Source: Paulownia fortunei (Eukaryota > Streptophyta > Magnoliopsida > Lamiales > Paulowniaceae). From it: a DNA stretch of 64,000 bases. The stretch is taken from positions 8,735,278 through 8,799,277 of the forward strand of contig CM033110.1 of the NCBI GenBank assembly GCA_019321725.1. Direction: 5' to 3'. Every line of letters begins with the position of its first letter. Within the stretch, counting starts at the first letter, position 1. Positions 1,078-52,345 of the stretch are shown here, one piece after another. A program made the translations under genes and the position numbers. The notes under the pieces were generated by a model, which saw nothing but the letters and a program-made list of their open reading frames with translations, was not told the DNA's origin and did no database searches.

Positions 1078-1158
1078 ATTCCCCCCAACCCTCTCTATAT
1101 ATTCATTGTTCTGAACTTGTCACATACTTATCTTTCTCTATATTTTCTTTATCGCCAG

Positions 1159-2240: not shown

Positions 2241-2792
2241 ATAATCTTGAGTGTTGTATAAAACATTATTCAGAGGCAAAATTGTTAACATAAAAGAGGT
2301 AGGGTGCCTCCTCCCTTCCCCTCTCTCTCTTCCTATTTCTAATGTGTCCATGCTAGGCCTTTCACAAACTTAAAAATATTACAGATTACTAGATTGTATA
2401 TCATTTGCAGCTCAGTTTCTTGAACTTATTTAATATGCAGTTACTTTCCCGCATACTATTCTTAGTATTTAGAAGGTCTTGTGTGGTTTGAATGGTATGA
2501 GAAGTAGAAACATGTTAGTATATCCTCATAAATATGAGAAAATGAGTAGCTATGGCAGTATTGGGAGATTTAATAGCTCCTGGTGCATGCATGGTGCTTT
2601 CACCAGAATAAGCTTTTTGAGCCCATAAAACTGTCAAGTAGATATATAGATATATTATAGTTGCTAAAAAGACTAAATAACACATTTGAGAAAGAGTTCT
2701 CTCCTGAATTATGGCTTTGAGGTGTTTTAGGAATGTTCAAATGCTAGTTGTCTTTCCAAAGCAGCTTTAAAAGAGTGGGAGACTAATTTCTC

Positions 2793-2844
<52 letters not shown>

Positions 2845-2960
2845 TGAGAGTTTTAAGCTTTAGATCTCAATGTCCTTTTTTAAAGCTTAACAAACCTTGT
2901 CATTTTAGTTGTGCCTGATAGCCATCGGGTGTTCATGAGTTGTATTCCTCCTATTCCCAC
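2241..2960. other. Spacer between VPS13-like copies
   Basis: Non-coding. Most of it is matched in reverse complement by 52346-53104, including a stretch near 2580-2630 that contains a TGCATGCATGG motif and reads in reverse at about 52700-52760. It is therefore intron or flank of the same duplicated unit. It contains the CT microsatellite described separately. No other gene seen. Confidence 0.6.
2789..2842 (+). repeat. (CT)n microsatellite
   Basis: About 27 CT units with one CCC interruption near 2802, in the spacer between VPS13-like copies V1 and V2. Confidence 0.95.
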
Positions 2961-3039
2961 CCCCCACCACTCTCTATATATTCGTGGTTCCGAACTTGTC
3001 ACATACTTATCCCCCTCTATATTGTCTTTTTATCGCCAG

Positions 3040-10284: not shown

Positions 10285-10289
10285 GTTAC
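10285..10289. repeat. Target site duplication of element A, left copy (GTTAC)
   Basis: GTTAC directly precedes the 5' LTR of A and is repeated exactly after the 3' LTR at 28962-28966. Five bases is the normal length for Ty3/gypsy integration. Confidence 0.85.
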
Positions 10290-11897
10290 TAATAAGTGCA
10301 TATTTTGACATATTTTTATATCAAATCCTTTATACTTTTCTTGCTTTATTCTTGTTAATATTCTTGTTTTATTAATGTTTTTGTTAGGGAATAAATGGAA
10401 GCATGTTTTCAGACTTGTGCAATTTTTGTAATTTGAGCATAACTTCATGATCAAAAGCTCTATGGACCTGAAGCTTGTTTCATTTGAAAGCCAAGAGATA
10501 GAGGTACAACTTTTATGTTGGAAGCTCAGCCCAATTCAGTCTTGATGATAGCATAAAATTCGTCCAAGTAATTACACAAAATGGATCACCAAAATTCAGA
10601 TCAGAATTCAGCCCAGTATTGACTTATTTTACCAATTCGGTTATATATCTTGAGCCCAAATTTATTTTGGTCTGAAATTCGGATATGTTATACCCAAGAG
10701 GTAAATAAACAAGTCTTATGAAGACAAGATGGTGTGAAAATGTGTCGAAATGGTAAAACCATAGGCTGCAAGTTGCTGCTGATGTTACAGGGCGGCTCTT
10801 GGACATGACTCGGTAATTTGACCATATCTCCTTCATCCGATCGCCACATTTGACAAAAGATATATGAAAATATATCAGCGTTGAAAGATCTACAATTTTT
10901 ATTCTTTACGTATCTTCAAACTCTGGCTGTATCTAATCTAAAAATGTAATTCAATTCAGTGGTTGAGAAATTTGTGTAACAACTTACCAACTCTTGGCAA
11001 CTAGCATACCACTTGATTAACCCTTCCATTATTTGTTTGCCTCTAGCTTACTCCAAGTACTATAAATAGGCCATATATTCAGCTTGTAAGAGGGGGGTAG
11101 AGGGTTTCTTTAGGCTAAGTTATCTTGTTTGTATGTTTTCTAGTATTGTAAGTTTTCTAGTAGTAATAGAAATGCATTCTCTAGTTTCTCTTATATTTTT
11201 AGTCTTTGTTACTTTTATTATGTCTTTCTAAATTTCATTTTGCTGAGGAAAAAGGGTGAATCTCTTGATGGAGGAAGAGAAATGGTTATAAGGGTAGAAA
11301 TTGTTTAAGTATGTTGTATTATTATTATTATTTTTGATCTAAACCCTACTTATTTTGTGGTGATTCTTGATTTATGTATCTCCAATGGCACAACAAATAC
11401 TTGGTTCATTTAGTTTATTGTACGGTTTTACCCCACCGACTGCTAATGTGAAACCTTGATTTGTTGTTGACGAAGGAGTATATAAATGCTTGATTCCATA
11501 AATAAGTGTTGGCGTTAAGAGATAATTTGCAATAGTAAGACAATATCATGATTACCTTATTGCATGAGTTACTTGATAATATCTTCCCATTGGAACCTTC
11601 ATTATGTATGGATTCCAATTGTGGCAATTAATAGAGCTAAAAAGAATAAATAATCATTTATCTATCCAAAAACTCAAGAGTGGATCCCTAATCCTCAGTA
11701 CTTTTATTACTTTTGTTTTTTTCTTTAGCTACATCATACATTAATTGTTCATATATTTTTATTCACATAAACTCCATCTTTTATAAATATAAACTTGAAT
11801 TCTTCAAACAACTTTCCTGTAGATCGACCTCGGACTCACGAGAAATTTATTACTTACTACAACCTGCACTTGGGTTTGCAACCTTAAAGTTGTAGCA
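10290..11897 (+). mobile_element. 5' LTR of element A
   Basis: Starts TAATAAGTGCATATT (the 3' LTR has TGATAAGTGC, so the canonical TG has become TA) and ends TTGTAGCA just before the PBS. Closely similar over its full length to 27352-28961 and, in reverse, to 21670-23284, which suggests recent insertion. It is non-coding. A 70-codon antisense frame at 10624-10836, repeated in the other two LTRs, has no recognised domain and is not called as a gene. Confidence 0.85.
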
Positions 11898-11902
11898 AGT
11901 TT

Positions 11903-11920
11903 TGGCGCCGTTGCCGGGGA
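11903..11920 (+). other. Primer-binding site of element A
   Basis: TGGCGCCGTTGCCGGGGA lies five bases after the LTR. This is the complement of a plant tRNA-Asp 3' end, the usual primer of Athila elements. Confidence 0.9.
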
Positions 11921-11993
11921 AGGCAAGGTAAGTATTCAGGTTTGTTAATATTTTTCCTTGTAAATATAGTTTGTTTATTTTCTTTATGGATAT

Positions 11994-13947
11994 ATGGTTA
12001 TATGGTATCGTAGTCATAATTCTCGACGTTTAGTAAGAAATAATTCCGAAATTTTGTTTGGAAATTTGTTTGAATCATCTCCACACACTTCCACCATGGC
12101 TGAAAATGAAAGTGTCCAGGATGAAAATGAGAATCAACAGGTGCGTACCATGCATTATTACTTGCAACCTCCTCGAAATTCTTCTCCTTCTTGTTTCATT
12201 TTTTCTCTAAATGCAAATAATTTTCGATTCAAGTCAGGTATGATCCCTTTACTTCCTAATTTCCATGGTTTAGACTCTGAAAGTCCTTACTTGCATTTAA
12301 AAGAATTTGATGAAGTATGTGCCACTTTTGATGATCAAACTTGCACAAATGAGATTGTTAAGCTCAAATTATTTCCTTTCTCTTTAAAAGATAAAGCAAA
12401 AAATTAGCTTAATTCTTTAAAACCTAGGTCAATTGGTACTTGGCAAGAAATGCAAGCTGAATTCTTGAAAAAATTCTTTCCAACTCATAAAACTAATGCT
12501 TTGAAAAGACAAATTCAAAATTTTTCTCAAAATTCGAATGAAGTTTTCTTTCAATGTTGGGAAAGATTTAAAGATTTGTTGAATTCATACCCACATCATG
12601 GTTTTGAAAAATGGCGCTTAATTAGTTTCTTTTATGAAGGTTTAACTCCTGAAACAAAACAATTTGTTAAAACAATGTGTAATGGTGAGTTTCTTGATAA
12701 GGAACCTGATGAAGCCCTAGAATACCTATCATTTGGCAGAAAACTCTCAATCATGGCATAGTGTTAATTCTTCTGAAGGTTCTATTAGATCTAATCTTGC
12801 TAATAGTAATAAAGGAAAATATTACCTTAGTCAAGAAGATGATCTAAATGCTAGACTTGCTAGTTTAACAAGAAAAGTTGAAGCCATGGAACTTAAGAAA
12901 GTAAAGGAAATCAAATCTATGCAAGAGGAAGAAGTTTGTAGCAATTGTGAACTTTCGGGGCACTCCACCAATGAATGTCCAAACCTTCCAGTACAAGCAA
13001 ATTTTATGAACACATTCAAAAAGCCTTTCCATTCTCCATATTCTGAAACTTACAATCCACAATGGAGAAATCATCCCAATTTCAGTTGGCGAGATGATAA
13101 CCGTGCCCAACCACCGCATTCACAAAAACCACAAAACTTTCATTCTTATCCACCTCCACATACAAAATCTATTGAGGAGACTTTGCAAGCATTTATGCAT
13201 GAACAAACAAACATCAATAATCAGACTTCACAAGCTATCAATGAGATCAGAAGCACACTTTCAACACTGACAACTTCTTTGCGTACTCATGAAAAAGGTA
13301 AATTTCCTACTCAACCTCAACCTAATCCTTCTACTCAGTGTCATGTTTCTTCTTCAGGTGAAAATGCAGTCAAGGAGGCTAATTCAGTTACAACTCTTCG
13401 GAATGGAAAAGTTGTTGACAAGACTATTCATCCCAAGGAGAAAGTTTCTAATCCACCTCCAGAAATAAAAAATGGAAATAGTCTTGACGATAAAGGTAAG
13501 TTTGAAGAAGGTAAGCGTGAAAATGAAGAAAAAGAAAAGTATTTACCTCCAGCACCCTTTCCTCAAAGATTGCAAGCAACTCAGAAATTGAACTCAAATG
13601 CTGAAATTTTTGAAATTTTTAAACAAGTAAATATTAATATTCCATTATTGGATGCAATCAAACAAGTTCCACCTTATGCCAAATTTTTGAAAGATTTGTG
13701 TACAATCAAAAGAAAACATCATGTACAAAAGAAGGCATTTTTAACTGAAAGTGTTAGTTCAATCATTCAACAATTCACTCCACCCAAGTACAAAGATCCA
13801 GGTTGTCCAACCATTTCATGTATCATAGGAAACACTAGAATAGAGCGTGCTTTGCTTGATCTTGGTGCTAGTGTAAATCTTATACCTTTCTCAGTTTATG
13901 AACAGTTAGGTTTGGGAGAACTTAAAACAACTTCTGTTGTACTCTAA
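11994..13947 (+). pseudogene. gag and protease region of element A, direct copy
   Basis: Athila-type gag. The N-terminal part is at 11994-12407 (capsid-like segment with PHLHLKEF-type motif), with a stop at 12405-12407 where the family normally has Trp. It continues at 12450-12761, overlapped from 12733 by a 404-codon frame that carries a zinc knuckle CSNCELSGHSTNEC (CX2CX4HX4C, residues about 72-85), a long basic linker, and the protease start with LLDLGASVNLIPF (active-site DLGA in place of the usual DTG/DSG). A second stop at 13945-13947 (Gln codon changed to TAA) cuts the protease. Both stops are also present in the inverted copy at 19621-21600, so they predate the duplication. No Gag-Pro polyprotein can be made without readthrough. 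Confidence 0.8.
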
Positions 13948-14039
13948 TTAGCTGACCGTTCGATTAAAGTTCCAAAGGGAATAGTAGAAGATGTGTTGAT
14001 ACAAATTGATAAGTTTTATTTTCCAGTTGATTTCATTTT

Positions 14040-16500
14040 TTGGACACAGAGCCTGTTGCACAAACACATACACAAATTTCTATCATTTTGGGTCGTCCTT
14101 TTCTTGCAACTTCAAATACTTTGATCAATTGTAGAAATGGTATTTTGAAGTTATCATTTGGAAATATGACTTTGGAACTAAATGTGTTTAATGTTTGTAT
14201 GCAACCTGCAGAAGATGTCGAAGTACATGAAGTGGATTCAATTGAGGAACTTGTTCATGAATACTTTACTACTACTAACTCTTCAGATTCTTTGGAGACT
14301 TGTTTTGAAAGTGAAAGTATTTATAAAAAGGAACACACTAATACTATCTCTGAATTTTTGCAGGTACAAGAAAAATATTTTTGGAAGCCAAGGTTCGAAG
14401 AACTTTCATCATCAACAGTAAAATCTATTCCATCAAGTATTAAAGCTCCCGTGGTTGAATTGAAACCTTTGCCAGTTAATTTGAAATACTCTTTCTTGGG
14501 TGAGAATGAAACTTTTCCAGTAATAATTTCTTCCAAACTCGATGCATATCAAGAACGTAAGTTGATCGAAACTCTGAAAATGCATAAGAATGCTTTAGGA
14601 TGGACCATTGCTGATATTAAAGGTATTAATCCTTTCATTTGTACACATAACATCTATCTAGAGAAAAATGCTAAACCATCTAGAGAAATACAACGAAGGT
14701 TAAATCCTAATATGAAAGAAGTAGTAAGAAATGAAGTCATTAAACTCTTAGATAATGGAATCATTTATTCTATTTCTGATAGCAAATGGATAAGTCCGAC
14801 TCAAGTTGTACCTAAGAAATCTGGAGTTATTGTAGTCAAGAATGAGAATGATGAATTAATTCCAACTAGGACTGTTACTGGTTGGCGAATGTGCATTGAC
14901 TATAGAAAACTCAACTCAGCCACTAGAAAAGATCATTTTCCATTACCTTTCATGGATCAAATTTTAGAAAGAGTTGCAGGACACGAATTTTATTGCTTTT
15001 TAGATGGAAATTCTGGATATAACCAAATTGCAATTGCACTTGAAGATCAAGAGAAAACAACTTTTACATGTTCTTTTGGTACTTTTGCATATCGAAGGAT
15101 GCCTTTTGGATTATGTAATGCACCAGCTACATTCCTACGATGCATGCTTAGTATTTTTAGTGACATGGTTGAATGTTTTCTTGAAGTCTTCATGGATGAT
15201 TTTTCTGTTTTTGGTAATTCATTTGATGATTGCTTATCTAATTTAGAAAAGGTTTTGATCTGGTGTGAAGAAAAGAATCTTGTGCTCAATTGGGAGAAAT
15301 GTCACTTCATGGTAACAACTGGAAAGATGCTATCACATTGGAACTCTCAAGATAAAAAGAAGTTTTTGACTGAGGTTAAAAAATTTTATTGGATGATCCA
15401 TACCTATTCAAATATTGTCCGGATCAATCTTTCGAAGATGTGTGCCTGACAATGAGATAGGTAATATTGTCAAATTTGTCATTCAGAAGCATGTGGTGGT
15501 CATTTTTCTGTAAAGAAAACTACTGCAAAAATCTTGCAATGTGGATTTTATTGGCCAACTCTTTTCAAAGATACTTACACTTTCTGCAAAAGTTGTTAAA
15601 ATTGTCAAAAGTTAGGGTCCCTTTCAAAGAGAAATATGATGCCCCTACACCCTATCCTAGTGATTGAAATCTTTGACTGTTGGGGTATTGATTTTATGGG
15701 GCCATTTCCATTATCATTTGGTTTCTTTACATATTGGTTGCCATAGATTATGTTTCAAAATGGATCGAGGCAATTCCTTGTCGAAACAATGATCACAAAA
15801 TAGTGATAAAATTTTTGAAAGAAAATATTTTAAGTCGATTTGGAATTCCTAGATCTATTATCAGTGATGGGGGAAAACATTTTTGTAACAAAATTTTCGG
15901 AACTTTAATGAAGAAATATGGAATCATACATAAAGTTGCAACCCCTTATCATCCTCAGACAAATGGACAAGTTGAACTTGCAAATAGGGAGATAAAACAA
16001 ATTTTGGAGAAAACAGTTAACCCAAACCGTAAAGATTGGTCTCTTAGACTTACCGATACACTTTGGGCATATAGAACTGCTTTCAAAACATCATTAGGCA
16101 TGTCTCTTATAGGATAGTTTATGGAAAACCTTGTCATTTACCTGTTGAACTTGAACATAAAGCTTATTGGGCAATCAAAATGTTTAACTTCAACCTTGAT
16201 GAAGTTTTAAAATTACGCAAATTGCAAATCAATGAACTTGAAGAACTGAGAAATGATGCATATGAGAATTCTAAAATTTATAAAGCAAGAATCAAAGATT
16301 TTCATGATAATAAAATTTCAAGAAAAATATTTGAGTTGGTCAAAAGGTTTTGCTTTATAATTTTCGATTGCATTTGTTTCCTGGAAAATTGAGATCAAGG
16401 TGGAGTGGTCTTTTTTTTGTAAAAAAAGTATATCCTTATGGGCGATTGACATTGAGAATCCTAGAAATGATAACATATTCAAAGTAAATGGACAAAGAGT
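14040..16500 (+). pseudogene. pol of element A: RT and integrase, RNase H missing
   Basis: The 469-codon frame 14040-15449 holds the end of protease (IILGRPFLAT) and a reverse transcriptase with WRMCIDYRKLN, FLDGNSGYNQI, MPFGLCNAPATF and catalytic FMDDFSVFG (about 15190-15210). After EKCHFMV (about 15310) the sequence jumps to the pre-integrase segment QDKKKFL; the RT thumb/connection and the whole RNase H domain are absent. Integrase follows in broken frames: [22 protein letters not shown] (15675-15705), then 15734-16117 with the catalytic DDE core ([18 protein letters not shown]; the [12 protein letters not shown] helix with E) and 16180-16392. A frameshift at 14038 is private to this copy. 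Not functional on its own. Confidence 0.8.
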
Positions 16501-16691: not shown

Positions 16692-17327
16692 TTGTCAGTT
16701 TCTCAAATAACTGAAATCTTTGTACAAATTTTCTTGTTTTTCTCATTCTCTTTTCTTGTTATTTTCAAAATGGGTGACATATTTCTAACTCTCAAGAAGC
16801 GATTTCCTTTTCTTCCTAAAAATGCAATTTTGAAAATTTATAAAATCAGGATTGAAAGATTGAGGATGCTTATGCACAAGGGCATTCCGGAGGACATACG
16901 ATGGTTAATTGAAGCAAAGGTAAGGGCAGGTGAGTTTTCACATGAGTTTCCAGATTTGCTTACTAGATACATGTCTGGTTTTGGTAAAAGCACATATTCA
17001 AAAAAACGAAGGGCGAAAAAAATGAAAGTTTGTCATATTTGTGCTAGATGGACTTGCAATACAAAGTGTCGTTCTTTAGGAATGGTCTCTAAAAATCGAG
17101 AAGATAAACTTAAATTTATTATGAATGGACTGAGTAAGGAGTCTTTAGATCACATTATATTGACTCTTGAGACGCATTCCTGTGGATTGGTACAACGTGC
17201 AATTCTTGATTTATGGGATCGTTTTCGAAATAAATATGAGCTTTATAGTCTTGGGAATCTGACATTAAAAGACCCTGTTTGCCAGTTTATAAGAAAACTA
17301 GATGGGAAGCATATCCTCGACCCATAG
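16692..17327 (+). CDS. Unrecognised 211-aa ORF with Cys cluster, downstream of pol
   Basis: Uninterrupted frame in the place where Athila elements often carry an extra (env-like) ORF. The in-frame ATG at 16770 (MGDIFLTLKKRF, 185 aa) has better context than 16692, whose first 26 residues are a Phe-rich hydrophobic stretch (VQIFLFFSFSFLVIF) that could be a signal anchor if translated. The rest is basic and helical-looking, with RIERLRMLMHKGIPEDIRWL, a SKKRRAKKMK basic patch that could be a nuclear signal, and a CHICARWTCNTKC cluster (CX2CX4CX3C) next to it. No transmembrane segment lies in the C-terminal half, so a typical Env is unlikely. Intact while the neighbouring gag and pol are broken. 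Function unknown. Confidence 0.55.
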   Translation: MSVSQITEIFVQIFLFFSFSFLVIFKMGDIFLTLKKRFPFLPKNAILKIYKIRIERLRMLMHKGIPEDIRWLIEAKVRAGEFSHEFPDLLTRYMSGFGKSTYSKKRRAKKMKVCHICARWTCNTKCRSLGMVSKNREDKLKFIMNGLSKESLDHIILTLETHSCGLVQRAILDLWDRFRNKYELYSLGNLTLKDPVCQFIRKLDGKHILDP

Positions 17328-17480
17328 AGGGCGTTTAAGCCATTACTGGACGTAAAACCAGAGGAAGATGTGAGCCACAATCACAACTACATGTACATAC
17401 ACGTGGTAGTAGGTAATTTTTAAATTTCGTATGTGTCCTTATTTTCAACCTTTTTGACAAAAGAAAAAGATATGCAATAC

Positions 17481-18401
17481 ATGTATTCCCTGTTCACACC
17501 TCAATAAATATCACCGTACTCACTCTATTTTTGCACAACTTATTTTCAAAAAAAAAAATAAATAAATAAAGAAAAAAAATGGAAGTTTCTTCAACTCGCA
17601 AATTTAATTCCATTTGTGTTTTTTGTGGATCCAATCTAGGAAAAAATGGTGAGTTTATAGGGGCAGCCAATAATCTTGGTAGAACTTTAGTAGAAAGAAA
17701 AATTCATTTAGTGTATGGGGGAGGCAGTTTGGGTTAATGGGAGTTGCCATTTCTGCTTATGTAGGAGGTGTCAAAGTTTTGGGAGTTATCCCAAAATGTT
17801 TAACAGTACAGAATATCACAGGTATGACCATTGGAGATGAGCTGAAAGTGTCACACATTCAGGACAGAATGCCTAATATGTTAAACAATGCGGATGCATT
17901 CATCATTCTACCTGGCGGTTTTGTACACTGGAAGAATTATTCCAAATTGTCTTTTGGGCATAACTCAACATTCACCAAAAACCTATAGGTATTCTTAATG
18001 TTAATGGTTTTTATAATGGTTTGCTATCTTTTGTAGATCATGCTGCGAAAAAAAGGGTTTATTTCAACTTCTGCGAGAAGAATCATCATTTCTGCTCCAA
18101 CACCTGACCAGCTGATTGATCAACTTCTAGCATATGTGCCAAAACCTGATCCAGTCTTGGCCAATGTGGATTGGTCCAATAGGAACAATGGTCGAAAACG
18201 CAAATTGAATTTGACTCTCAGTCTGTGATACTTATTGTTAATGATTTTATCTAATAATATGTGTGTTTTTTTTGTTGTTTCAGCTTTTTTAGCCGCATTT
18301 CAGGTGATATCTTTCAAACTTTACTTTCATATTTATTTTTGACATTGGGGACAATGTCTCGATTAGGTTGGGGTGAGGGATAATTGATATCATGACTTGT
18401 A
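17481..18401 (+). repeat. LOG segment, copy 1 (direct repeat X1)
   Basis: This block recurs at 24860-25782 in the same orientation. It spans the LOG leader, the coding frame and an Athila-typical 3' stretch (GACATTGGGGACAATGTC near 18340). The two copies flank the inverted block 18402-24855. Base 18402 begins sequence that is the reverse complement of pol ending at 15167. Confidence 0.85.
17579..18228 (+). pseudogene. LOG-like cytokinin-activating enzyme, decayed copy
   Basis: Near-identical to the intact frame at 24956-25609 but broken by indels. A G is lost in GGGG after the GGGSLG motif and bases are missing just after it (about 17735-17750). A G is lost inside the PGGFGT motif (about 17922). 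An A is gained in the A-run of AAKKGF (about 18050). All are at or next to homopolymers, so consensus error cannot be excluded for some, but the missing bases near 17745 are not a simple homopolymer change. Intronless like its partner. It lies in the order pol, unknown ORF, LOG expected of the unrearranged element. Confidence 0.85.
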
Positions 18402-19620
18402 CATGTCACTAAAAATACTAAGCATGCATCGTAGGAATGTAGCTGGTGCATTACATAATCCAAAAGGCATCCTTCGATATGCAAAAGTACCAAAAGGACA
18501 TGTAAAAGTTGTTTTCTCTTGATCTTCAAGTGCAATTGCAATTTGGTTATATCCAGAATTTCCATCTAAAAAGCAATAAAATTCGTGTCCTGCAACTCTT
18601 TCTAAAATTTGATCCATGAAAGGTAATGGAAAATGATCTTTTCTAGTGGCTGAGTTGAGTTTTCTATAGTCAATGCACATTCGCCAACCAGTAACAGTCC
18701 TAGTTGGAATTAATTCATCATTCTCATTCTTGACTACAGTAACTCCAGATTTCTTAGGTACAACTTGAGTCGGACTTACCCATTTGCTATCAGAAATAGA
18801 ATAAATGATTCCATTATCTAAGAGTTTAATGACTTCATTTCTTACTACTTCTTTCATATTAGGATTTAACCTTCGTTGTATTTCTCTAGATGGTTTAGCA
18901 TTTTCTCTAGATAGATGTTATGTGTACAAATGAAAGGATTAATACCTTTAATATCAGCAATGGTCCATCCTAAAGCATTCTTATGCATTTTCAGAGTTTC
19001 GATCAACTTACGTTCTTGATATGCATCGAGTTTGGAAGAAATTATTACTGGAAAAGTTTCATTCTCACCCAAGAAAGAGTATTTCAAATTAACTGGCAAA
19101 GTTTCAATTCAACCACGGGAGCTTTAATACTTGATGGAATAGATTTTACTGTTGATGATGAAAGTTCTTCGAACCTTGGCTTCCAAAAATATTTTTCTTG
19201 TACCTGCAAAAATTCAGAGATAGTATTAGTGTGTTCCTTTTTATAAATACTTTCACTTTCAAAACAAGTCTCCAAAGAATCTGAAGAGTTAGTAGTAGTA
19301 AAGTATTCATGAACAAGTTCCTCAATTGAATCCACTTCATGTACTTCGACATCTTCTGCAGGTTGCATACAAACATTAAACACATTTAGTTCCAAAGTCA
19401 TATTTCCAAATGATAACTTCAAAATACCATTTCTACAATTGATCAAAGTATTTGAAGTTGCAAGAAAAGGACGACCCAAAATGATAGAAATTTGTGTATG
19501 TGTTTGTGCAACAGGCTCTGTGTCCAAAACAATGAAATCAACTGGAAAATAAAACTTATCAATTTGTACCAACACATCTTCTACTATTCCCTTTGGAACT
19601 TTAATCGAACGGTCAGCTAA
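18402..19620 (-). pseudogene. Inverted copy of pol of element A (protease end and RT, truncated)
   Basis: Reverse complement of about 13948-15167. On the minus strand it runs through IILGRPFLAT and the RT motifs WRMCIDYRKLN and MPFGLCNAPATF, then stops at SIFSDM, just before the catalytic FMDD, where it meets LOG segment X1. It keeps an intact reading across the point where the direct copy is frameshifted (14038), but has its own frameshift near 18905 after IYLEK. Truncated and without catalytic aspartates. Confidence 0.85.
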
Positions 19621-21600
19621 TTAGAGTACAACAGAAGTTGTTTTAAGTTCTCCCAAACCTAACTGTTCATAAACTGAGAAAGGTATAAGATTTACACTAG
19701 CACCAAGATCAAGCAAAGCACGCTCTATTCTAGTGTTTCCTATGATACATGAAATGGTTGGACAACCTGGATCTTTGTACTTGGGTGGAGTGAATTGTTG
19801 AATGATTGAACTAACACTTTCAGTTAAAAATGCCTTCTTTTGTACATGATGTTTTCTTTTGATTGTACACAAATCTTTCAAAAATTTGGCATAAGGTGGA
19901 ACTTGTTTGATTGCATCCAATAATGGAATATTAATATTTACTTGTTTAAAAATTTCAAAAATTTCAGCATTTGAGTTCAATTTCTGAGTTGCTTGCAATC
20001 TTTGAGGAAAGGGTGCTGGAGGTAAATACTTTTCTTTTTCTTCATTTTCACGCTTACCTTCTTCAAACTTACCTTTATCGTCAAGACTATTTCCATTTTT
20101 CATTTCTGGAGGTGGATTAGAAACTTTCTCCTTGGGATGAATAGTCTTGTCAACAACTTTTCCATTCCGAAGAGTTGTAACTGAATTAGCCTCCTTGACT
20201 GCATTTTCACCTGAAGAAGAAACATGACACTGAGTAGAAGGATTAGGTTGAGGTTGAGTAGGAAATTTACCTTTTTCATGAGTACGCAAAGAAGTTGTCA
20301 GTGTTGAAAGTGTGCTTCTGATCTCATTGATAGCTTGTGAAGTCTGATTATTGATGTTTGTTTGTTCATGCATAAATGCTTGCAAAGTCTCCTCAATAGA
20401 TTTTGTATGTGGAGGTGGATAAGAATGAAAGTTTTGTGGTTTTTGTGAATGCGGTGGTTGGCACGGTTATCATCTCGCCAACTGAAATTGGGATGATTTC
20501 TCCATTGTGGATTGTAAGTTTCAGAATATGGAGAATGGAAAGGCTTTTTGAATGTGTTCATAAAATTTGCTTGTACTGGAAGGTTGGACATTCATTGGTG
20601 GAGTGCCCCGAAAGTTCACAATTGCTACAAACTTCTTCCTCTTGCATAGATTTGATTTCCTTTACTTTCTTAAGTTCCATGGCTTCAACTTTTCTTGTTA
20701 AACTAGCAAGTCTAGCATTTAGATCATCTTCTTGACTAAGGTAATATTTTCCTTTATTACTATTAGCAAGAGAATCTAATAGAACCTTCAGAAGAATTAA
20801 CACTATGCCATGATTGAGAGTTTTCTGCCAAATGATCTAGGTATTCTAGGGCTTCATCAGGTTCCTTATCAAGAAACTCACCATTACACATTGTTTTAAC
20901 AAATTGTTTTGTTTCAGGAGTTTAAACCTTCATAAAAGAAACTAATTAAGCGCCATTTTTCAAAACCATGATGTGGGTATGAATTCAACAAATCTTTAAA
21001 TCTTTCCCAACATTGAAAGAAAACTTCATTCGAATTTTGAGAAAAATTTTGAATTTGTCTTTTCAAAGCATTAGTTTTATGAGTTGGAAAGAATTTTTTC
21101 AAGAATTCAGCTTGCATTTCTTGCCAAGTACCAATTGACCTAGGTTTTAAAGAATTAAGCTAATTTTTTGCTTTATCTTTTAAAGAGAAAGGAAATAATT
21201 GAGCTTAACAATCTCATTTGTGCAAGTTTGATCATCAAAAGTGGCACATACTTCATCAAATTCTTTTAAATGCAAGTAAGGACTTTCAGAGTCTAAACCA
21301 TGGAAATTAGGAAGTAAAGGATCATACCTGACTTGAATCGAAAATTATTTGCATTTAGAGAAAAAATGAAACAAGAAGGAGAAGAATTTCGAGGAGGTTG
21401 CAAGTAATAATGCATGGTACGCACCTGTTGATTCTCATTTTCATCCTGGACACTTTCATTTTCAGCCATGGTGGAAGTGTGTGGAGATGATTCAAACAAA
21501 TTTCCAAACAAAATTTCGGAATTATTTCTTACTAAACGTCGAGAATTATGACTACGATACCATATAACCATATATCCATAAAGAAAATAAACAAACTATA
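19621..21600 (-). pseudogene. Inverted copy of gag-protease of element A
   Basis: Reverse complement of about 11994-13947, with the zinc knuckle at about 20590-20640 and the 254-codon C-terminal frame 19621-20385 ending in LLDLGASVNLIPF. It shares the two premature stops with the direct copy (Trp to stop in the capsid region near 21165; Gln to stop at 19621-19623). It has additional private frameshifts, for example at 20385-20440, 20780, 20915 and 21300. Not functional. Confidence 0.85.
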
Positions 21601-21645
21601 TTTACAAAGGAAAAATATTAACAAACCTGAATACTTACCTTGCCT

Positions 21646-21663
21646 TCCCCGGCAACGGCGCCA
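21646..21663 (-). other. Primer-binding site of the inverted block
   Basis: Reverse complement of TGGCGCCGTTGCCGGGGA, identical to the PBS at 11903-11920 and placed six bases from the inverted LTR. Confidence 0.9.
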
Positions 21664-21669
21664 AAAACT

Positions 21670-23284
21670 TGCTACAACTTTAAGGTTGCAAACCCAAGTG
21701 CAGGTTGTAGTAAGTAATAAATTTCTCATGAGTCCGAGGTCGATCTACAGGGAAGTTGTTTGAAGAATTCAAGTTTATATTTATAAAAAGATGGAGTTTA
21801 TGTGAATAAAAAATATATGAACAATTAATGTATGATGTAGCTAAAGAAAAAAACCAAAGTAATAAAAGTACTGAGGATTAAGGATCCACTCTTGAGTTTT
21901 TGGATAGATAAATGATTATTTATTCTTTTTACCTCTATTAATTGCCACAATTGGAATCCATACATAATGAAGGTTCCAATGGGAAGATATTATCAAGTAA
22001 CTCATGCAATAAGGTAATCATGATATTGTCTTACTATTGCAAATTATCTCTTAACGCCAACACTTATTTATGGAATCAAGCATTTATATACTCCTTCGTC
22101 AACAACAAATCAAGGTTTCACATTAGCAGTCGGTGGGGTAAAAACCGTACAATAAACTAAATGAACCCAAGTATTTGTTGTGCCATTGGAGATACATAAA
22201 TCAAGAATCACCACAAAAATAAGTAGGGTTTAGATCAAAATAATAATAATAATACAACATACTTAAACAATTTCTACCCTTATAACCATTTCTCTTCCTC
22301 CATCAAGAAATTCACCCTTTTTCCTCAGCAAATTGAAATTTAGAAAGACATAATAAAAGTAACAAAGACTAAAAATATAAGAGAAACTAGAGAATGCATT
22401 TCTATTACTACTAGAAAACTTACAATACTAGAAAACATACAAACAAGATAACTTAGCCTAAAGAAACCCTCTACCCCCCCTCTTACAAGCTGAATATATG
22501 GCCTATTTATAGTACTTGGAGTAAGCTAGAGGCCAAACAAATAATGAAGGGGTTAATCAAGTGGTATGCTAGTTGCCAAGAGTTGGTAAGTTGTTACACA
22601 AATTTCTCAACCACTGAATTGAATTACATTTTTAGATTAGATACAGCCAGAGTTTGAAGATACGTAAAGAATAAAAATTGTAGATCTTTCAACGCTGATA
22701 TATTTTCATATATCTTTTGTCAAATGTGGCGATCGGATGAAGGAGATATGGTCAAATTACCGAATCATGTCCAAGAGCCGCCCTGTAACATCAGCAGCAA
22801 CTTGCATCCTATGGTTTTACCATTTCGACACATTTTCACACCATCTTGTCTTCATAAAACTTGTTTATTTACCTCTTGGGTATAACATATCTGAATTTCA
22901 GACGAAAATAAATTTAGGCTCAAGATATATAACCGAATTGGTAAAATAAGTCAATGCTGGGCTGAACTCTGATCTGAATTTTGGTGATCCATTTTGTGTA
23001 ATTACTTGGACGAATTTTATGCTATCATCAAGACTGAATTGGGCTGAGCCTCCAACATAAAAGTTGTACCTCTATCTCTTGGCTTTCAAATGAAATAAGC
23101 TTCAGGTCCATAGAGCTTTTGATCATGAAGTTATGCTCAAATTACAAAAATTGCACAAGTCTGAAAACATGCTTCCATTTATTCCCTAACACAAAACATT
23201 AATAAAACAAGAATATTAACAAGAATAAAGCAAGAAAAGTATAAAGGATTTGATATAAAAATATGTTAAAATATGCACTTATCA
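21670..23284 (-). mobile_element. Third, inverted LTR inside element A
   Basis: About 1615 bp, starting TGATAAGTGC on the minus strand at 23284 and ending TTGTAGCA at 21670. It has a PBS and gag on one side and a polypurine tract on the other. That is the arrangement of a one-LTR circle opened in its interior, or of two tandem elements sharing an LTR. It has no flanking target duplication of its own. Confidence 0.85.
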
Positions 23285-24855
23285 AATTCCCCCACACTTA
23301 ACCCTTGCTTGTCCTCGAGCAAGTTTAAAACAAACATAAACTAATCCACTTTCGTAGGAAAACACGATTGCATTTAGCATATGCAACAAGCCTTTAAACC
23401 CCTAGGTGGCCCATAGAGGATGAGTTATAGTCTCGTGAAGGTTTCCAGCAGTGATACCTACAAACACCTATAATAACTATCTTCCAACTTTTATTCTCAT
23501 GAAGCAACAAAGTAATATGGAAATAAAATCAAACAAGTGTTGAGTTTAACTCTTAGTCATTCAAAAATCAATACATTTCCACAATAATCATACTCAAGTG
23601 TATGTGTGGACAGTTAATGTCAATAGTGATGAAACTATGCATGTTTCTAATAAGTGAATTCTCATAAAACCTTACAAAACCATCACCCAATCTCTAACAG
23701 AAAAGTTAAACATCATAGGCTCTTCCTTTGTGTAAATCTCCACTACACTGAAGGCACCACACGAAATCAAAAAGTCTTTAACAAAGGTTGTAATGGGGCC
23801 AAAGGGTGGTGATGTAGCTAAGAAATAAAAGGATAGGATGCAACAAAGGTTCTAAAAACTTCATGGAATCGGAGACATAAAATTTATCGATGAAGAATTC
23901 TCCAACTCCACAAATTTCACACTGGAGTCTATTGTTATTGAATTGGACCCCTCTTATTCATCTTACAACATCTCATTTTTAGTTGCAACTTGTAGCACTT
24001 TGCAACTTTTTTTTTTATATTGTTTTTTTCTTTTTTCTTTTTTTTTTTTTATAGAGAAACTCCCCCACACTTATCTTCTATCCCAACCTAAATTTCTGTT
24101 GTAAGTTCAAGCTTTCAATTGAATGTCTCTTAAACTCCAATCATTTTTAGAACAAGGGTTGGATAATAGTGTATTTAGGCTAGGTAAAAAGATATGGTTA
24201 CAAAAAAAAATATATTTATTTATTGTAAGGCTCAAAGTGGTTTACTAGGGGGATGTTTTCTTTAAATATCATATAGGGAACAAGCTGATTTGACAATGGT
24301 GCTAGAAAGCCTAATGCCTTAATCATTTTTCTAGTGGTGCACTATCAGTCGTTCGCCTCGACAGACCAAAAGTAAAAGTTCTAATACTCAACCCCTACAT
24401 ATTGAAGATTCAAGTGATGACTAGAGTAAGGGCATAAGAACTATATATTTTGACATGATTGTCTTCACACTAAATAACATAACTATTTGTGCAAAATAAA
24501 ATTTGAGTATAATTATCGCAAAAATATATTAACCAAATAACAACATCAAAGTCCAAAACAACACCCATCATCAATTAAACCATATTATTCATGCTTAATT
24601 TTAATCATTGAAGTTGGAAGAACCTATACGACTCAAAAAAATATTGGTAATTCACAAATACTTGTTAAAAACTTTACAAACCTGCCATATTATGCAAAAA
24701 ATAGGGATGCGTCTCAAGAGTATTACAATTACCCTTTACTCAGTCACCTTTTTTCATGCTTTCAACGGACCCAGCAAAAAAACACGCTTGATTTATATTT
24801 ATTTATTTATTTATTTATTATTTATTTATTTATTATTTTTTTTTATATACTAAAA
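23285..24855 (-). mobile_element. Inverted 3' internal region with polypurine tract (left palindrome arm)
   Basis: Reverse complement of 25799-27351. The polypurine tract TTAAGTGTGGGGGAATT lies at 23285-23301 on the minus strand, preceded by the CTCGAGGACAAGCAAG stretch. A second GTGTGGGGGAG tract lies at about 24059-24072. No coding frame is recognised; an 81-codon plus-strand frame at 24608 is mirrored at 25786-26034 and is a by-product of the palindrome. Confidence 0.8.
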
Positions 24856-24859
24856 ATAA

Positions 24860-25782
24860 ATGTATTCCCTGTTCACACCTCAATAAATATCACCGTACTC
24901 ACTCTATTTTTGCACAACTTATTTTCAAAAAAAATAAATAAATAAAGAAAAAAAAATGGAAGTTTCTTCAACTCGCAAATTTAATTCCATTTGTGTTTTT
25001 TGTGGATCCAATCTAGGAAAAAATGGTGAGTTTATAGGGGCAGCCAATAATCTTGGTAGAACTTTAATAGAAAGAAAAATTCATTTAGTGTATGGGGGAG
25101 GCAGTTTGGGGTTAATGGGGAGTGTTGCCATTTCTGCTTATGTAGGAGGTGTCAAAGTTTTGGGAGTTATCCCAAAATGTTTAACAGTACAGAATATCAC
25201 AGGTATGACCATTGGAGATGAGCTGAAAGTGTCACACATTCAGGACAGAATGCCTAATATGTTAAACAATGCGGATGCATTCATCATTCTACCTGGCGGT
25301 TTTGGTACACTGGAAGAATTATTCCAAATTGTCTTTTGGGCACAACTCAACATTCACCAAAAACCTATAGGTATTCTTAATGTTAATGGTTTTTATAATG
25401 GTTTGCTATCTTTTGTAGATCATGCTGCGAAAAAAGGGTTTATTTCAACTTCTGCGAGAAGAATCATCATTTCTGCTCCAACACCTGACCAGCTGATTGA
25501 TCAACTTCTAGCATATGTGCCAAAACCTGATCCAGTCTTGGCCAATGTGGATTGGTCCAATAGGAACAATGGTCGAAAACGCAAATTGAATTTGACTCTC
25601 AGTCTGTGATACTTATTGTTAATGATTTTATCTAATAATATGTGTGTTTTTTTTGTTGTTTCAGCTTTTTTAGCCGCATTTCAGGTGATATCTTTCAAAC
25701 TTTACTTTCATATCTATTTTTGACATTGGGGACAATGTCTCGATTAGGTTGGGGTGAGGGATAATTGATATCATGACTTGTA
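24860..25782 (+). repeat. LOG segment, copy 2 (direct repeat X2)
   Basis: Second copy of 17481-18401. It sits between the two arms of the palindrome (left 21670-24855, right 25799-28961) and forms its central spacer. Confidence 0.85.
24956..25609 (+). CDS. LOG-like cytokinin riboside 5'-monophosphate phosphoribohydrolase, intronless, inside retrotransposon
   Basis: A complete 217-aa frame with the LOG family architecture. Enzymes of this family split cytokinin riboside monophosphates into active free-base cytokinin and ribose 5-phosphate, usually in cytosol and nucleus. Visible motifs: ICVFCGSNLG (residues 12-21), GGGSLGLMG (47-55), Arg98 before the helix ending in ADAFI, and the signature PGGFGTLEE (113-121) with Glu121. 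Length is normal for the family. The tail NGRKRKLNLTLSL (205-217) ends in an LxLxL pattern that resembles an EAR motif. The first ATG follows an A-rich leader in good context. Plant LOG genes normally contain several introns and this has none, so it is a cDNA-derived copy. It lies in sense between element 5' and 3' sequences. Expression is unproven. Confidence 0.85.
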   Translation: MEVSSTRKFNSICVFCGSNLGKNGEFIGAANNLGRTLIERKIHLVYGGGSLGLMGSVAISAYVGGVKVLGVIPKCLTVQNITGMTIGDELKVSHIQDRMPNMLNNADAFIILPGGFGTLEELFQIVFWAQLNIHQKPIGILNVNGFYNGLLSFVDHAAKKGFISTSARRIIISAPTPDQLIDQLLAYVPKPDPVLANVDWSNRNNGRKRKLNLTLSL

Positions 25783-27351
25783 TATTCAATGTGTGTTTTT
25801 TTTTAGTATATAAAAAAAAATAATAAATAAATAAATAAATAAATATAAATCAAGCGTGTTTTTTTTGCTGGGTCCGTTGAAAGCATGAAAAAAGGTGACT
25901 GAGTAAAGGGTAATTGTAATACTCTTGAGACGCATCCCTATTTTTTGCATAATATGGCAGGTTTGTAAAGTTTTTAACAAGTATTTGTGAATTACCAATA
26001 TTTTTTTGAGTCGTATAGGTTCTTCCAACTTCAATGATTAAAATTAAGCATGAATAATATGGTTTAATTGATGATGGGTGTTGTTTTGGACTTTGATGTT
26101 GTTATTTGGTTAATATATTTTTGCGATAATTATACTCAAATTTTATTTTGCACAAATAGTTATGTTATTTAGTGTGAAGACAATCATGTCAAAATATATA
26201 GTTCTTATGCCCTTACTCTAGTCATCACTTGAATCTTCAATATGTAGGGGTTGAGTATTAGAACTTTTACTTTTGGTCTGTCGAGGCGAACGACTGATAG
26301 TGCACCACTAGAAAAATGATTAAGGCATTAGGCTTTCTAGCACCATTGTCAAATCAGCTTGTTCCCTATATGATATTAAAGAAAACATCCCCTAGTAAAC
26401 CACTTTGAGCCTTACAATAAATAAATATATTTTTTTTTTGTAACCATATCTTTTTACCTAGCCTAAATACACTATTATCCAACCCTTGTTCTAAAAATGA
26501 TTGGAGTTTAAGAGACATTCAATTGAAAGCTTGAACTTACAACAGAAATTTAGGTTGGGATAGAAGATAAGTGTGGGGGAGTTTCTCTATAAAAAAAAAG
26601 AAAAAAGAAAAAAACAATATAAAAAAAAAAGTTGCAAAGTGCTACAAGTTGCAACTAAAAATGAGATGTTGTAAGATGAATAAGAGGGGTCCAATTCAAT
26701 AACAATAGACTCCAGTGTGAAATTGTGGAGTTGGAGAATTTTTCATCGATAAATTGTATGTCTCCGATTCCATGAAGTTTTTAGAACCTTGTTGCATCCT
26801 ATCCTTTTATTTCTTAGCTACATCACCACCCTTTGGCCCCATTACAACCTTTGTTAAAGATCTTTTGATTTCGTGTGGTGCCTTCAGTGTAGTGGAGATT
26901 TACACCAAAGGAAGAGCTTATGATGTTTAACTTTTCTGTTAGAGATTGGGTGATGGTTTTGTAAGGTTTTATGAGAATTCACTTATTAGAAACATGCATA
27001 GTTTCATCACTATTGACATTAACTGTCCACACACACACTTGAGTATGATTATTGTGGAAATGTATTGATTTTTGAATGACTAAGAGTTAAACTCAACACT
27101 TGTTTGATTTTATTTCCATATTACTTTGTTGCTTCATGAGAATAAAAGTTGGAAGATAGTTATTATAGGTGTTTGTAGGTATCACTGCTGGAAACCTTCA
27201 CGAGACTATAACTCATCCTCTATGGGCCACCTAGGGGTTTAAAGGCTTGTTGCATATGCTAAATGCAATCGTGTTTTCCTACGAAAGTGGATTAGTTTAT
27301 GTTTGTTTTAAACTTGCTCGAGGACAAGCAAGGGTTAAGTGTGGGGGAATT
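25783..27351 (+). mobile_element. 3' internal region and polypurine tract of element A (right palindrome arm)
   Basis: Non-coding Athila-type sequence leading to the 3' LTR. The polypurine tract TTAAGTGTGGGGGAATT ends at 27351, preceded by CTCGAGGACAAGCAAG. A second GTGTGGGGGAG tract is at about 26570-26582. Reverse complement of 23285-24855. Confidence 0.8.
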
Positions 27352-28961
27352 TGATAAGTGCATATTTTAACATATTTTTATATCAAATCCTTTATACTTT
27401 TCTTGCTTTATTCTTGTTAATATTCTTGTTTTATTAATTTTGTGTTAGGAATAAATGGAAGCATGTTTTCAGACTTGTGCAATTTTGTAATTTGAGCATA
27501 ACTTCATGATCAAAAGCTCTATGGACCTGAAGCTTGTTTCATTTGAAAGCCAAGAGATAGAGGTACAACTTTTATGTTGGAGGCTCAGCCCAATTCAGTC
27601 TTGATGATAGCATAAAATTCGTCCAAGTAATTACACAAAATGGATCACCAAAATTCAGATCAGAGTTCAGCCCAGCATTGACTTATTTTACCAATTCGGT
27701 TATATATCTTGAGCCCAAATTTATTTTGGTCTGAAATTCGGATATGTTATACCCAAGAGGTAAATAAACAAGTCTTATGAAGACAAGATGGTGTGAAAAT
27801 GTGTCGAAATGGTAAAACCATAGGCTGCAAGTTGCTGCTGATGTTACAGGGCGGCTCTTGGACATGACTCGGTAATTTGACCATATCTCCTTCATCCGAT
27901 CGCCACATTTGACAAAAGATATATGAAAATATATCAGCGTTGAAAGATCTACAATTTTTATTCTTTACGTATCTTCAAACTCTGGCTGTATCTGTATCTA
28001 AAAATGTAATTCAATTCAGTGGTTGAGAAATTTGTGTAACAACTTACCAACTCTTGGCAACTAGCATACCACTTGATTAACCCTTCCATTATTTGTTTGG
28101 CCTCTAGCTTACTCCAAGTACTATAAATAAGCCATATATTCAGCTTGTAAGAGGGGGGGTAGAGGGTTTCTTTAGGCTAAGTTATCTTGTTTGTATGTTT
28201 TCTAGTATTGTAAGTTTTCTAGTAGTAATAGAAATGCATTCTCTAGTTTCTCTTATATTTTTAGTCTTTGTTACTTTTATTATGTCTTTCTAAATTTCAT
28301 TTTGCTGAGGAAAAAGGGTGAATCTCTTGATGGAGGAAGAGAAATGGTTATAAGGGTAGAAATTGTTTAAGTATGTTGTATTATTATTATTATTTTTGAT
28401 CTAAACCCTACTTATTTTTGTGGTGATTCTTGATTTATGTATCTCCAATGGCACAACAAATACTTGGGTTCATTTAGTTTATTGTACGGTTTTACCCCAC
28501 CGACTGCTAATGTGAAACCTTGATTTGTTGTTGACGAAGGAGTATATAAATGCTTGATTCCATAAATAAGTGTTGGCGTTAAGAGATAATTTGCAATAGT
28601 AAGACAATATCATGATTACCTTATTGCATGAGTTACTTGATAATATCTTCCCATTGGAACCTTCATTATGTATGGATTCCAATTGTGGCAATTAATAGAG
28701 GTAAAAAGAATAAATAATCATTTATCTATCCAAAAACTCAAGAGTGGATCCCTAATCCTCAGTACTTTTATTACTTTGGTTTTTTCTTTAGCTACATCAT
28801 ACATTAATTGTTCATATATTTTTATTCACATAAACTCCATCTTTTTATAAATATAAACTTGAATTCTTCAAACAACTTCCTGTGGATCGACCTCGGACTC
28901 ACGAGAAATTTATTACTTACTACAACCTGCACTTGGGTTTGCAACCTTAAAGTGTGTAGCA
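27352..28961 (+). mobile_element. 3' LTR of element A
   Basis: TGATAAGTGCATATT to GTGTAGCA, 1610 bp, followed by GTTAC. Closely similar to the 5' LTR; the differences I see are scattered point changes and homopolymer length changes. Confidence 0.88.
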
Positions 28962-28966
28962 GTTAC
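28962..28966. repeat. Target site duplication of element A, right copy (GTTAC)
   Basis: Exact repeat of 10285-10289. Confidence 0.85.
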
Positions 28967-52337: not shown

Positions 52338-52345
52338 CTGGCAAT

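What the first reader, a model, noticed from the sequence alone, without database searches (positions are those of the whole stretch)
24956..25609. Intact, intronless LOG (cytokinin-activating) gene carried inside an Athila-type retrotransposon
The sequence shows a complete 217-aa LOG-like frame with GGGSLGLMG, Arg98 and PGGFGTLEE, lying in sense between pol and the polypurine tract of an LTR element with a clean 5-bp target duplication. Plant LOG genes are normally split by several introns and this copy has none, so it passed through RNA. The LOG segment is followed by Athila-typical 3' sequence, so it is part of the element body. If the family is mobile, it would spread a hormone-activation gene under LTR control. 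I know of no described Athila element carrying LOG, but I could not search.
Basis: partly seen in the sequence, partly recalled or inferred. Interest (0 to 1): 0.88.

Follow-up and report, generated by a model that had tools for sequence, protein, structure and literature searches.

The report
Retrotransposon carrying LOG-like and virus-like genes
A common jumping gene in this plant genome carries two extra genes, one related to a cytokinin-activating enzyme and one resembling a plant-virus zinc-finger protein, which suggests it may manipulate its host much as a virus does.

Summary
The LOG-like frame (24956-25609) is real (217 aa, PF03641 E 6.9e-37) and belongs to the body of a mobile, high-copy Ty3/gypsy, probably Athila, family: 4,368 first-look candidates, 150 scored, those at 85-100% identity. 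In 20 copies read over about 10 kb the element's 3' region follows LOG in 20; 7 of 11 copies with both ends readable have exact, differing target duplications. Purifying selection is weakly supported (LOG omega 0.50, p 0.03; CRP 0.41, p 0.04). I found no report of the CRP+LOG pair in the library searched.

The parts
10285..10289 (.). target-site duplication, left copy (GTTAC)
   Evidence: read directly
10290..11897 (+). 5' LTR (begins TA where the other LTR starts printed mostly begin TG)
   Evidence: self-BLAST; K2P to the 3' LTR 0.0063
11903..11920 (+). primer-binding site TGGCGCCGTTGCCGGGGA (tRNA-Asp type; the assignment is recalled)
   Evidence: read directly
12408..12758 (+). gag capsid region
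   Evidence: PF03732 E 5.2e-18
14040..15449 (+). pol frame with reverse transcriptase; RT-to-INT spacing shorter than in other copies (RNase H part missing, inferred from L011)
   Evidence: PF00078 E 3.4e-28; spacing; RNase H place in L011
15734..16117 (+). integrase core
   Evidence: PF00665 E 2.1e-12
16770..17327 (+). extra ORF 1: 185-aa virus-like cysteine-rich (nucleic-acid-binding) protein; basic stretch followed by a cysteine cluster
   Evidence: PF01623 Carla_C4 E 1.3e-5, above the gathering score; PF05515 Viral_NABP E 0.0018, below it; the same two families in 7 of 7 other intact copies, in 0 of 3 shuffles
17579..18228 (+). LOG copy 1, frame broken by small indels
   Evidence: 98.3% to copy 2 over 17476-18404 / 24855-25785
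18402..21669 (-). inverted RT-gag block (second element)
   Evidence: 98.98% to 10292-15167 including the LTR; gag-RT K2P 0.0022
21670..23284 (-). inner LTR, inverted, flanked by element sequence on both sides
23285..24833 (-). inverted 3' non-coding region
   Evidence: 98.5% to 25808-28961 together with the LTR
24956..25609 (+). extra ORF 2: LOG copy 2, 217 aa, the frame given
   Evidence: PF03641 E 6.9e-37
25808..27334 (+). 3' non-coding region of the element
   Evidence: present after LOG in 20 of 20 stretches
27335..27351 (+). polypurine tract (TTAAGTGTGGGGGAATT)
   Evidence: read directly; a like tract precedes the LTR in 14 of the 15 rows whose LTR match starts at base 1 (exception: the upstream LTR of L009)
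27352..28961 (+). 3' LTR (TGATAAGTGC...GTAGCA)
28962..28966 (.). target-site duplication, right copy (GTTAC)

Best explanation
The window holds one rearranged member of a high-copy, Athila-like Ty3/gypsy retrotransposon family whose order is LTR, gag, pol, CRP, LOG, 3' region, LTR. In the place where Athila elements can carry an env-like frame, this family carries two candidate host-manipulation genes. The first is a cysteine-rich nucleic-acid-binding protein of the carlavirus type. The second is an intronless, divergent LOG-fold nucleotide phosphoribohydrolase. Shown: anatomy, many copies, independent insertions, presence of both genes in copies of different age, and a changed base pocket in all LOG copies examined. 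Inferred: both are made from element transcripts. The CRP acts in the nucleus or on RNA to blunt silencing or reprogram transcription, as viral CRPs do. The LOG-like enzyme still breaks the bond between base and ribose phosphate of some nucleotide, with altered base preference. Together they make the cell more permissive (less silenced, more dividing) for transposition. The window copy itself probably arose as a two-element tandem sharing one inner LTR, followed by inversion of the stretch from the first 3' region to the second RT and loss of the second integrase-CRP part.
For: Genome search: 4,368 LOG and 4,056 CRP first-look candidates; 150 scored in each, at 85-100% and 86-100% identity. 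CRP, LOG and 3' region in 7 of 7 loci beyond the window; in 20 stretches of about 10 kb, LOG then 3' region 20/20, CRP upstream 19/20 (one partial), RT and/or INT upstream 17/20, long forward LTR after it 18/20 (L009 and L010 are the loci L002 and L007). Target duplications exact and different in 7 of 11. LTR K2P 0.0047-0.0964 in 11 pairs, so LOG is found in insertions of very different age. pol of L011: RT, one RNase H, integrase. Carla_C4 above the gathering score in 8 of 8 CRP copies scanned (intact ones chosen), in 0 of 3 shuffles. Variants shared by 3 or more copies: omega RT 0.25 (p 0.005), CRP 0.41 (p 0.042), LOG 0.50 (p 0.032). LOG keeps E120/E121 in 45/45 and R98 in 44/45 copies at 98 of 199 identities to an Arabidopsis LOG. 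Viral CRPs are reported as silencing suppressors, and one as a transcription factor inducing hyperplasia (PMC12172455, passages).
Against: No expression, protein or activity data. Selection on LOG and CRP is weakly significant: Fisher tests of shared (3 or more copies) against single variants are 0.32 and 0.30, against 0.017 for RT; variants in exactly two copies give CRP omega 1.29 and LOG 0.81; 3 shared CRP codon classes are stops. The integrase control is uninformative and points the other way (shared by 3 or more: 4 nonsynonymous, 1 synonymous, 1 stop; by two: 9 to 0). In copies chosen by a non-coding piece, CRP singletons give omega 1.29. Of 18 usable copies there (20 fetched), 7 LOG and 5 CRP frames have no gap, insertion or stop; ten of the other LOG frames carry only 1- or 2-base deletions and no stop, and one (L060) is cut by the stretch end, so some breaks may be assembly errors. 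The pocket changes could mean loss of enzyme activity. The Carla_C4 match covers only 34 residues.
Confidence: 0.55

Rival explanations
1. The LOG still makes active cytokinin from cytokinin ribotides. The element raises local cytokinin and so the number of dividing cells.
For: Catalytic Arg and Glu, most of the phosphate loop and the Trp of the prenyl pocket are kept; nearest solved relatives are plant LOGs. Pocket residues are described as somewhat variable between LOG types (PMC5379747, passages).
Against: Met, His, Lys and Glu of the base/prenyl pocket are Ile, Gln, Met and Gln in 45 of 45 copies. Alanine at the matching Lys gave complete loss of AMP hydrolysis in CgLOGII (PMC5379747, passages); in CgLOG alanine at the AMP-binding residues, Lys100 listed among them, gave almost complete loss (PMC4979012 section 6; figure not seen). 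Host exons found by pattern keep MH(Q/E)RK (17 of 18 hits).
Confidence: 0.22
2. LOG and CRP are passengers: captured once, carried by a successful lineage, without present benefit.
For: Singletons look nearly neutral (omega LOG 0.77, CRP 0.72), CRP variants in two copies give 1.29, Fisher tests are not significant, and many frames are broken.
Against: A 217-codon frame about half identical to plant LOGs keeps its family signature and catalytic residues across copies whose LTR K2P spans 0.005-0.096; variants shared by 3 or more copies lean to synonymous, as RT does. LOG-type domains in Gypsy elements are reported from Citrus and Populus as well.
Confidence: 0.15
3. The changed LOG pairs with host LOG subunits and spoils or shifts their activity; Glu125 and Trp129 of the proposed prenyl pocket come from the neighbouring subunit in CgLOG.
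For: Catalytic residues and Trp kept, pocket changed; the cross-subunit pocket is described in PMC4979012 section 6.
Against: No test of dimer formation; at about 49% identity hetero-dimers may not form.
Confidence: 0.08
4. The CRP likeness is convergence of a short basic-plus-zinc-finger stretch, so ORF 1 is an ordinary element-born frame, not virus-related.
For: Only 34 residues match Carla_C4; Viral_NABP is below its cut-off. No relative confirmed in one scan of viral contigs and none among solved structures.
Against: Two viral models both pick it, the second over 87 residues (37-123), beyond the cysteine cluster; three shuffles of equal composition match neither.
Confidence: 0.35
5. Artefact: a host LOG next to unrelated LTRs, or a misassembly.
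For: The window copy has inverted blocks and two LOGs, as chimeric assemblies can.
Against: LOG followed by the element's 3' region in all 27 fetched stretches, which are 25 separate places, with different flanks in the rows printed and target duplications.
Confidence: 0.01

Closest known systems
Athila clade of Ty3/gypsy (OTA) LTR retrotransposons
   Same: LTR TG...CA, tRNA-Asp-type primer site (recalled), long 3' non-coding region, extra sense frames between pol and 3' LTR, a single RNase H in L011
   Different: The extra frames are CRP-like and LOG-like. No PF03078 (Athila ORF-1) match was listed for the frames scanned; that domain is reported in only 16% of Athila elements (PMC6317226, passages)
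Gypsy elements with a YgdH (LOG-type) domain in Citrus sinensis, C. clementina and Populus trichocarpa
   Same: LOG-type domain in plant Gypsy consensus sequences (PMC9289625, section 12 read; it cites Steinbauerova et al. 2011, which is not held)
   Different: In the section read there are two sentences on it, without residues, copy structure or partner gene; no CRP-like gene is mentioned. Whether those elements are the same lineage as this one is not known
Plant LONELY GUY (LOG) phosphoribohydrolases
   Same: PF03641, PGGxGTxxE, catalytic Arg98 and Glu121, Trp128
   Different: Intronless; Ile95, Gln96, Met99, Gln124 in place of Met, His, Lys, Glu; 98 of 199 identities to an Arabidopsis LOG while two Arabidopsis LOGs share 134 of 196
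Carlavirus and related CRP / nucleic-acid-binding proteins (PF01623, PF05515)
   Same: Basic stretch followed by a zinc-finger-like cysteine cluster; above the gathering score for PF01623
   Different: 185 aa with parts outside the match; carried by an LTR retrotransposon, not an RNA virus
Phalaenopsis Gypsy elements with an AlkB/2-ODD RNA demethylase
   Same: An extra enzyme gene fixed in a plant Gypsy family, proposed to bear on host control (PMC9289625 abstract, passages and section 12)
   Different: Different enzyme; Tat/Ogre-related element

Membership tests
Ty3/gypsy LTR retrotransposon | LTRs TG..CA, 5-bp target duplication, primer site, polypurine tract | tested here: met
   exact duplications in 7 of 11 copies with both ends readable, 4 of 5 bases in 2, none in 2
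Ty3/gypsy LTR retrotransposon | gag and pol in the order protease-RT-RNase H-integrase | tested here: met
   gag in the window; L011: protease (just below its cut-off), RT, RNase H, H2C2, rve in that order, the integrase over two frames
Athila clade | RT/INT tree placement with Athila | not tested
   no reference element proteins at hand
Athila clade | no additional RNase H (aRH marks the Tat clade; PMC6317226, passages) | tested here: met
   one RNase H region in the L011 pol frame (one copy examined); a weak second domain cannot be excluded
LOG enzyme family | PF03641 domain and PGGxGTxxE motif | tested here: met
   for the window frame; in 26 copies the motif's P, G or T is changed in some older ones (P 19, G 24 and 20, G 26, T 23 of 26)
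LOG enzyme family | catalytic Arg and Glu | tested here: met
   R98 in 44 of 45, E121 in 45 of 45 copies
Cytokinin-activating LOG (dimeric, plant type) | adenine/prenyl pocket Met-His-Lys-Glu-Trp | tested here: not met
   Ile-Gln-Met-Gln-Trp; the first four in 45 of 45, Trp in 43 of 45, against PMC4979012 section 6
Cytokinin-activating LOG (dimeric, plant type) | releases free cytokinin from ribotides | not testable with these tools
   needs an enzyme assay
Carlavirus-type CRP / NABP | profile match above the curated cut-off | tested here: met
   PF01623 25.3-25.5 bits against 20.9 in 8 of 8 copies scanned; PF05515 below its cut-off in all 8
Carlavirus-type CRP / NABP | same fold over the full length | tested here: inconclusive
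   single-sequence model, mean pLDDT 41, not usable
Carlavirus-type CRP / NABP | nucleic-acid binding, silencing suppression or nuclear action | not testable with these tools
   needs bench work

The most novel reading that the evidence does not exclude
A plant retrotransposon lineage has armed itself with a two-gene virulence-like cassette: a nuclear/RNA-binding protein related to RNA-virus silencing suppressors, and a LOG-fold enzyme with a re-cut base pocket that acts on a nucleotide other than the classical cytokinin precursors. The pair stands in the env position and helps the element spread in its host genome.
Probability: 0.35. Interest if true: 0.9.

Novelty: new variant of a known kind. 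Interest (0 to 1): 0.72.

Why it matters
It would be a concrete case of a plant retrotransposon carrying accessory host-manipulation genes in the env position: one seemingly shared with RNA viruses and one from plant hormone metabolism. It makes the question of what plant env-position extra frames do directly testable, with two short proteins whose relatives have standard assays. Thousands of candidate LOG copies also mean that annotation of this genome could count retrotransposon LOGs as host LOG genes.

Tried and rejected
Plain single element in the window: rejected, because self-comparison shows an inner inverted LTR and two LOG copies. Separate LTR insertions around a host LOG: rejected by the same order in other copies and by target duplications. 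Scans of viral contigs with LOG, CRP and RT: no relative confirmed. CRP against solved structures: none. Structure models of CRP and LOG without an alignment: mean pLDDT 41 and 34.6, not used. A first pN/pS on copies ranked by LOG protein score (27 LOG, 24 CRP, 17 INT: 0.526, 0.527, 1.18) was set aside as biased. A second on 20 LOG and 19 CRP copies chosen by non-coding DNA (0.875, 1.255) was set aside because poorly covered copies (L058, L061) were forced into it. One search drops stretches under 85% coverage (listed there) and uses 45 LOG, 42 CRP, 17 INT and 13 RT copies; most of these (27 of 45 LOG) still come from the LOG-ranked set or the window. The 20 copies are 20 of the 38 non-window rows, in rank order, leaving out two already held and one likely duplicate. 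A fragment of an Arabidopsis LOG as query brought up only retrotransposon-like full-length rows among the 150 scored; a codon pattern then found host exons. Papers: searches on LOG with retrotransposons, on Athila env-like frames and on carlavirus with retrotransposons gave the Citrus/Populus precedent and, in the rows listed, nothing on a CRP in an LTR element; only the top rows of each search were seen. One search's top row is the one listed paper that holds all three words (a review of viral proteases, seen in the listing only).

Full report
What is in the window. The frame at 24956-25609 is open for 217 codons and is a LOG-type protein: PF03641 at E 6.9e-37, nearest solved chains two Arabidopsis proteins of the LOG family (2.2e-63 and 5.1e-58). 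There are three LTR copies of about 1.6 kb (10290-11897 forward, 21670-23284 inverted, 27352-28961 forward) and two LOG copies (17476-18404 and 24855-25785, 98.3% identical), of which the first is broken by small indels. The stretch 18402-24833 is inverted and reads, on the minus strand, 3' region, LTR, gag, RT. One 5-bp duplication, GTTAC, flanks the whole composite.

How the composite may have formed. Substitution divergence between duplicated parts is low: 5' and 3' LTR 0.0063, outer against inner LTR 0.0126 and 0.0100, LOG copies 0.0065, 3' regions 0.0059, gag-RT 0.0022 (K2P). The order fits a two-element tandem that shares an inner LTR, then inversion of the stretch from the first 3' region to the second RT, with loss of the second integrase and CRP. 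Template switching during reverse transcription would also fit. This part is inference, and a misassembly of this one copy is not excluded.

The family. The window lies in a 509-Mb genome. The LOG protein gave 4,368 first-look candidates, of which 150 were scored, those at 85-100% identity; the CRP gave 4,056, of which 150 were scored, at 86-100%; a 641-base non-coding piece gave 2,398, of which 40 were scored. Unscored candidates are not confirmed. Seven of 7 loci beyond the window carried CRP (broken in two), LOG and the 3' region. Twenty stretches of about 10 kb, spread down the list (two of them repeat loci), showed LOG then 3' region in 20 of 20, CRP upstream in 19 of 20 (one partial), RT and/or integrase upstream in 17 of 20, and a long forward LTR after it in 18 of 20; L021 and L024 are rearranged there. 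Flanks after the LTR differ between the copies printed. For 15 copies the left end was sought; both ends could be read in 11, with exact 5-bp duplications in 7, four of five bases in 2, and no duplication in 2. LTR pairs of 11 copies span K2P 0.0047-0.0964. LOG is thus found in insertions of very different age.

What kind of element. gag (PF03732), and in L011 a protease just below cut-off, RT, one RNase H region, and integrase with its H2C2 part, the integrase over two frames. With a single RNase H, a long 3' non-coding region and a tRNA-Asp-type primer site (recalled), it fits Athila rather than Tat in the terms of PMC6317226 (passages). An RT tree was not made.

The second extra gene. A 185-aa frame at 16770-17327, just upstream of the first LOG copy, matches PF01623 (Carlavirus putative nucleic acid binding protein) at 25.5 bits against a cut-off of 20.9, and PF05515 (viral nucleic acid binding) at E 0.0018, below its cut-off. 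Seven further copies, chosen because intact, give the same; three shuffles do not. The PF01623 match covers 34 residues, so common descent with viral CRPs is likely but not proven. Viral CRPs are described as silencing suppressors, and one as a transcription factor that induces hyperplasia (PMC12172455, passages). The combination with a LOG-type enzyme is therefore suggestive.

The LOG is not an ordinary LOG. Identity to the Arabidopsis chain 2a33 is 98 of 199, while two Arabidopsis LOGs share 134 of 196. The catalytic Arg98 is kept in 44 of 45 copies and Glu121 in 45 of 45; the phosphate loop is kept in the window copy and in most of 26 copies, with changes in older ones. But Ile95, Gln96, Met99 and Gln124 replace Met, His, Lys and Glu in 45 of 45 copies. 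In Corynebacterium LOG the corresponding Met96, His97, Lys100, Glu125 and Trp129 are proposed to form the prenyl pocket and are said to be identical in Arabidopsis LOG3, rice and Claviceps LOGs; alanine in place of the AMP-binding and catalytic residues almost abolished activity, with one exception at a serine (PMC4979012 section 6; the figure was not seen). In a second LOG of the same bacterium the matching Lys-to-Ala change abolished activity on AMP (PMC5379747 passages). Host LOG exons in this same genome keep the canonical residues: 18 pattern hits, 17 of them coding MH(Q/E)RKAEM (the pattern itself asks for Met, His and Lys, so it cannot find others). One host locus read over 250 bases has an apparent splice donor right after LPG, inside the PGGxGT motif, where the element's LOG runs on. 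So the element's LOG lacks that intron, and its base preference has probably changed or its activity is lost.

Selection. Variants seen in three or more copies, which mostly arose before insertion, were compared with an expectation from the mutation spectrum of the non-coding region. RT, as control, gave omega 0.25 (p 0.005); CRP 0.41 (p 0.042, with 3 stop classes); LOG 0.50 (p 0.032); integrase had 4 nonsynonymous, 1 synonymous and 1 stop. Variants in exactly two copies gave RT 0.41 (p 0.022), LOG 0.81, CRP 1.29, and integrase 9 to 0. Singletons were near neutral for RT (0.93) and integrase (0.92), and 0.77 and 0.72 for LOG and CRP. Shared against single did not differ significantly for LOG or CRP (Fisher p 0.32 and 0.30), but did for RT (0.017). 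In the 18 usable copies chosen by non-coding DNA, singletons were 29 nonsynonymous to 26 synonymous for LOG (omega 0.40, p 0.00065) but 23 to 6 for CRP (1.29). The verdict is weak to moderate purifying selection on LOG and weaker evidence for CRP. In that sample 7 of 18 LOG and 5 of 18 CRP frames have no gap, insertion or stop; no LOG of the 18 has an in-frame stop, ten carry only 1- or 2-base deletions and one is cut by the stretch end. Such deletions could be decay or assembly errors.

Prior work. A LOG-type (YgdH) domain in Gypsy consensus sequences of two Citrus species, and of Populus trichocarpa under a laxer filter, is reported in PMC9289625 (section 12 read), which cites an earlier report of 2011 (not held). 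That section has two sentences on it and no CRP. Searches for carlavirus together with LTR or Athila elements showed, in the rows listed, no report of a CRP in such an element (listings only). So LOG-type domains in Gypsy elements are known; the CRP+LOG pair, the pocket change and the family anatomy were not found in this library.

Verdict. The 'cytokinin-activating' claim is open. The larger surprise is the virus-like partner gene.

Noticed in passing
L021:6463-9514: A piece of about 100 bp of the LTR start recurs four times at about 983-bp spacing after the element's 3' region, like a young satellite grown from the element.
   Followed up: no
L024:5345-8478: Another internally inverted copy: 3' region, inverted LTR and inverted 3' region, then LTR. 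Inverted rearrangements may recur in this family.
   Followed up: partly
window 43700-48800: Stretch of very low G+C (0.14-0.21 in the 2-kb bins from 44 to 50 kb), dense with imperfect direct and inverted repeats.
   Followed up: no
window 1081-4352 and 51531-54282: Repeats of mostly 75-81% identity in opposite orientation near the two sides of the window.
   Followed up: no
C1, C2, C3, C4, C7, C11, C15, C18 and six small contigs: Seventeen canonical LOG exons in the host genome, eleven of them on the large contigs; some hits share the same 24 bases and may be duplicates.
   Followed up: partly
window 25586-25606: The LOG frame ends in LNLTLSL (LKLTLSL in part of the copies), which looks like a plant EAR-type repressor motif (recalled); not tested.
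   Followed up: no
L044-L063, LOG frames: Single-base deletions recur at the same places in several young copies (for example columns 172, 202, 306, 480) without stops or insertions: shared decay or homopolymer assembly errors.
   Followed up: partly
window 56638-57018 (-): Frame with a helicase C-terminal domain (PF00271), SNF2-like by eye; probably a host gene.
   Followed up: no
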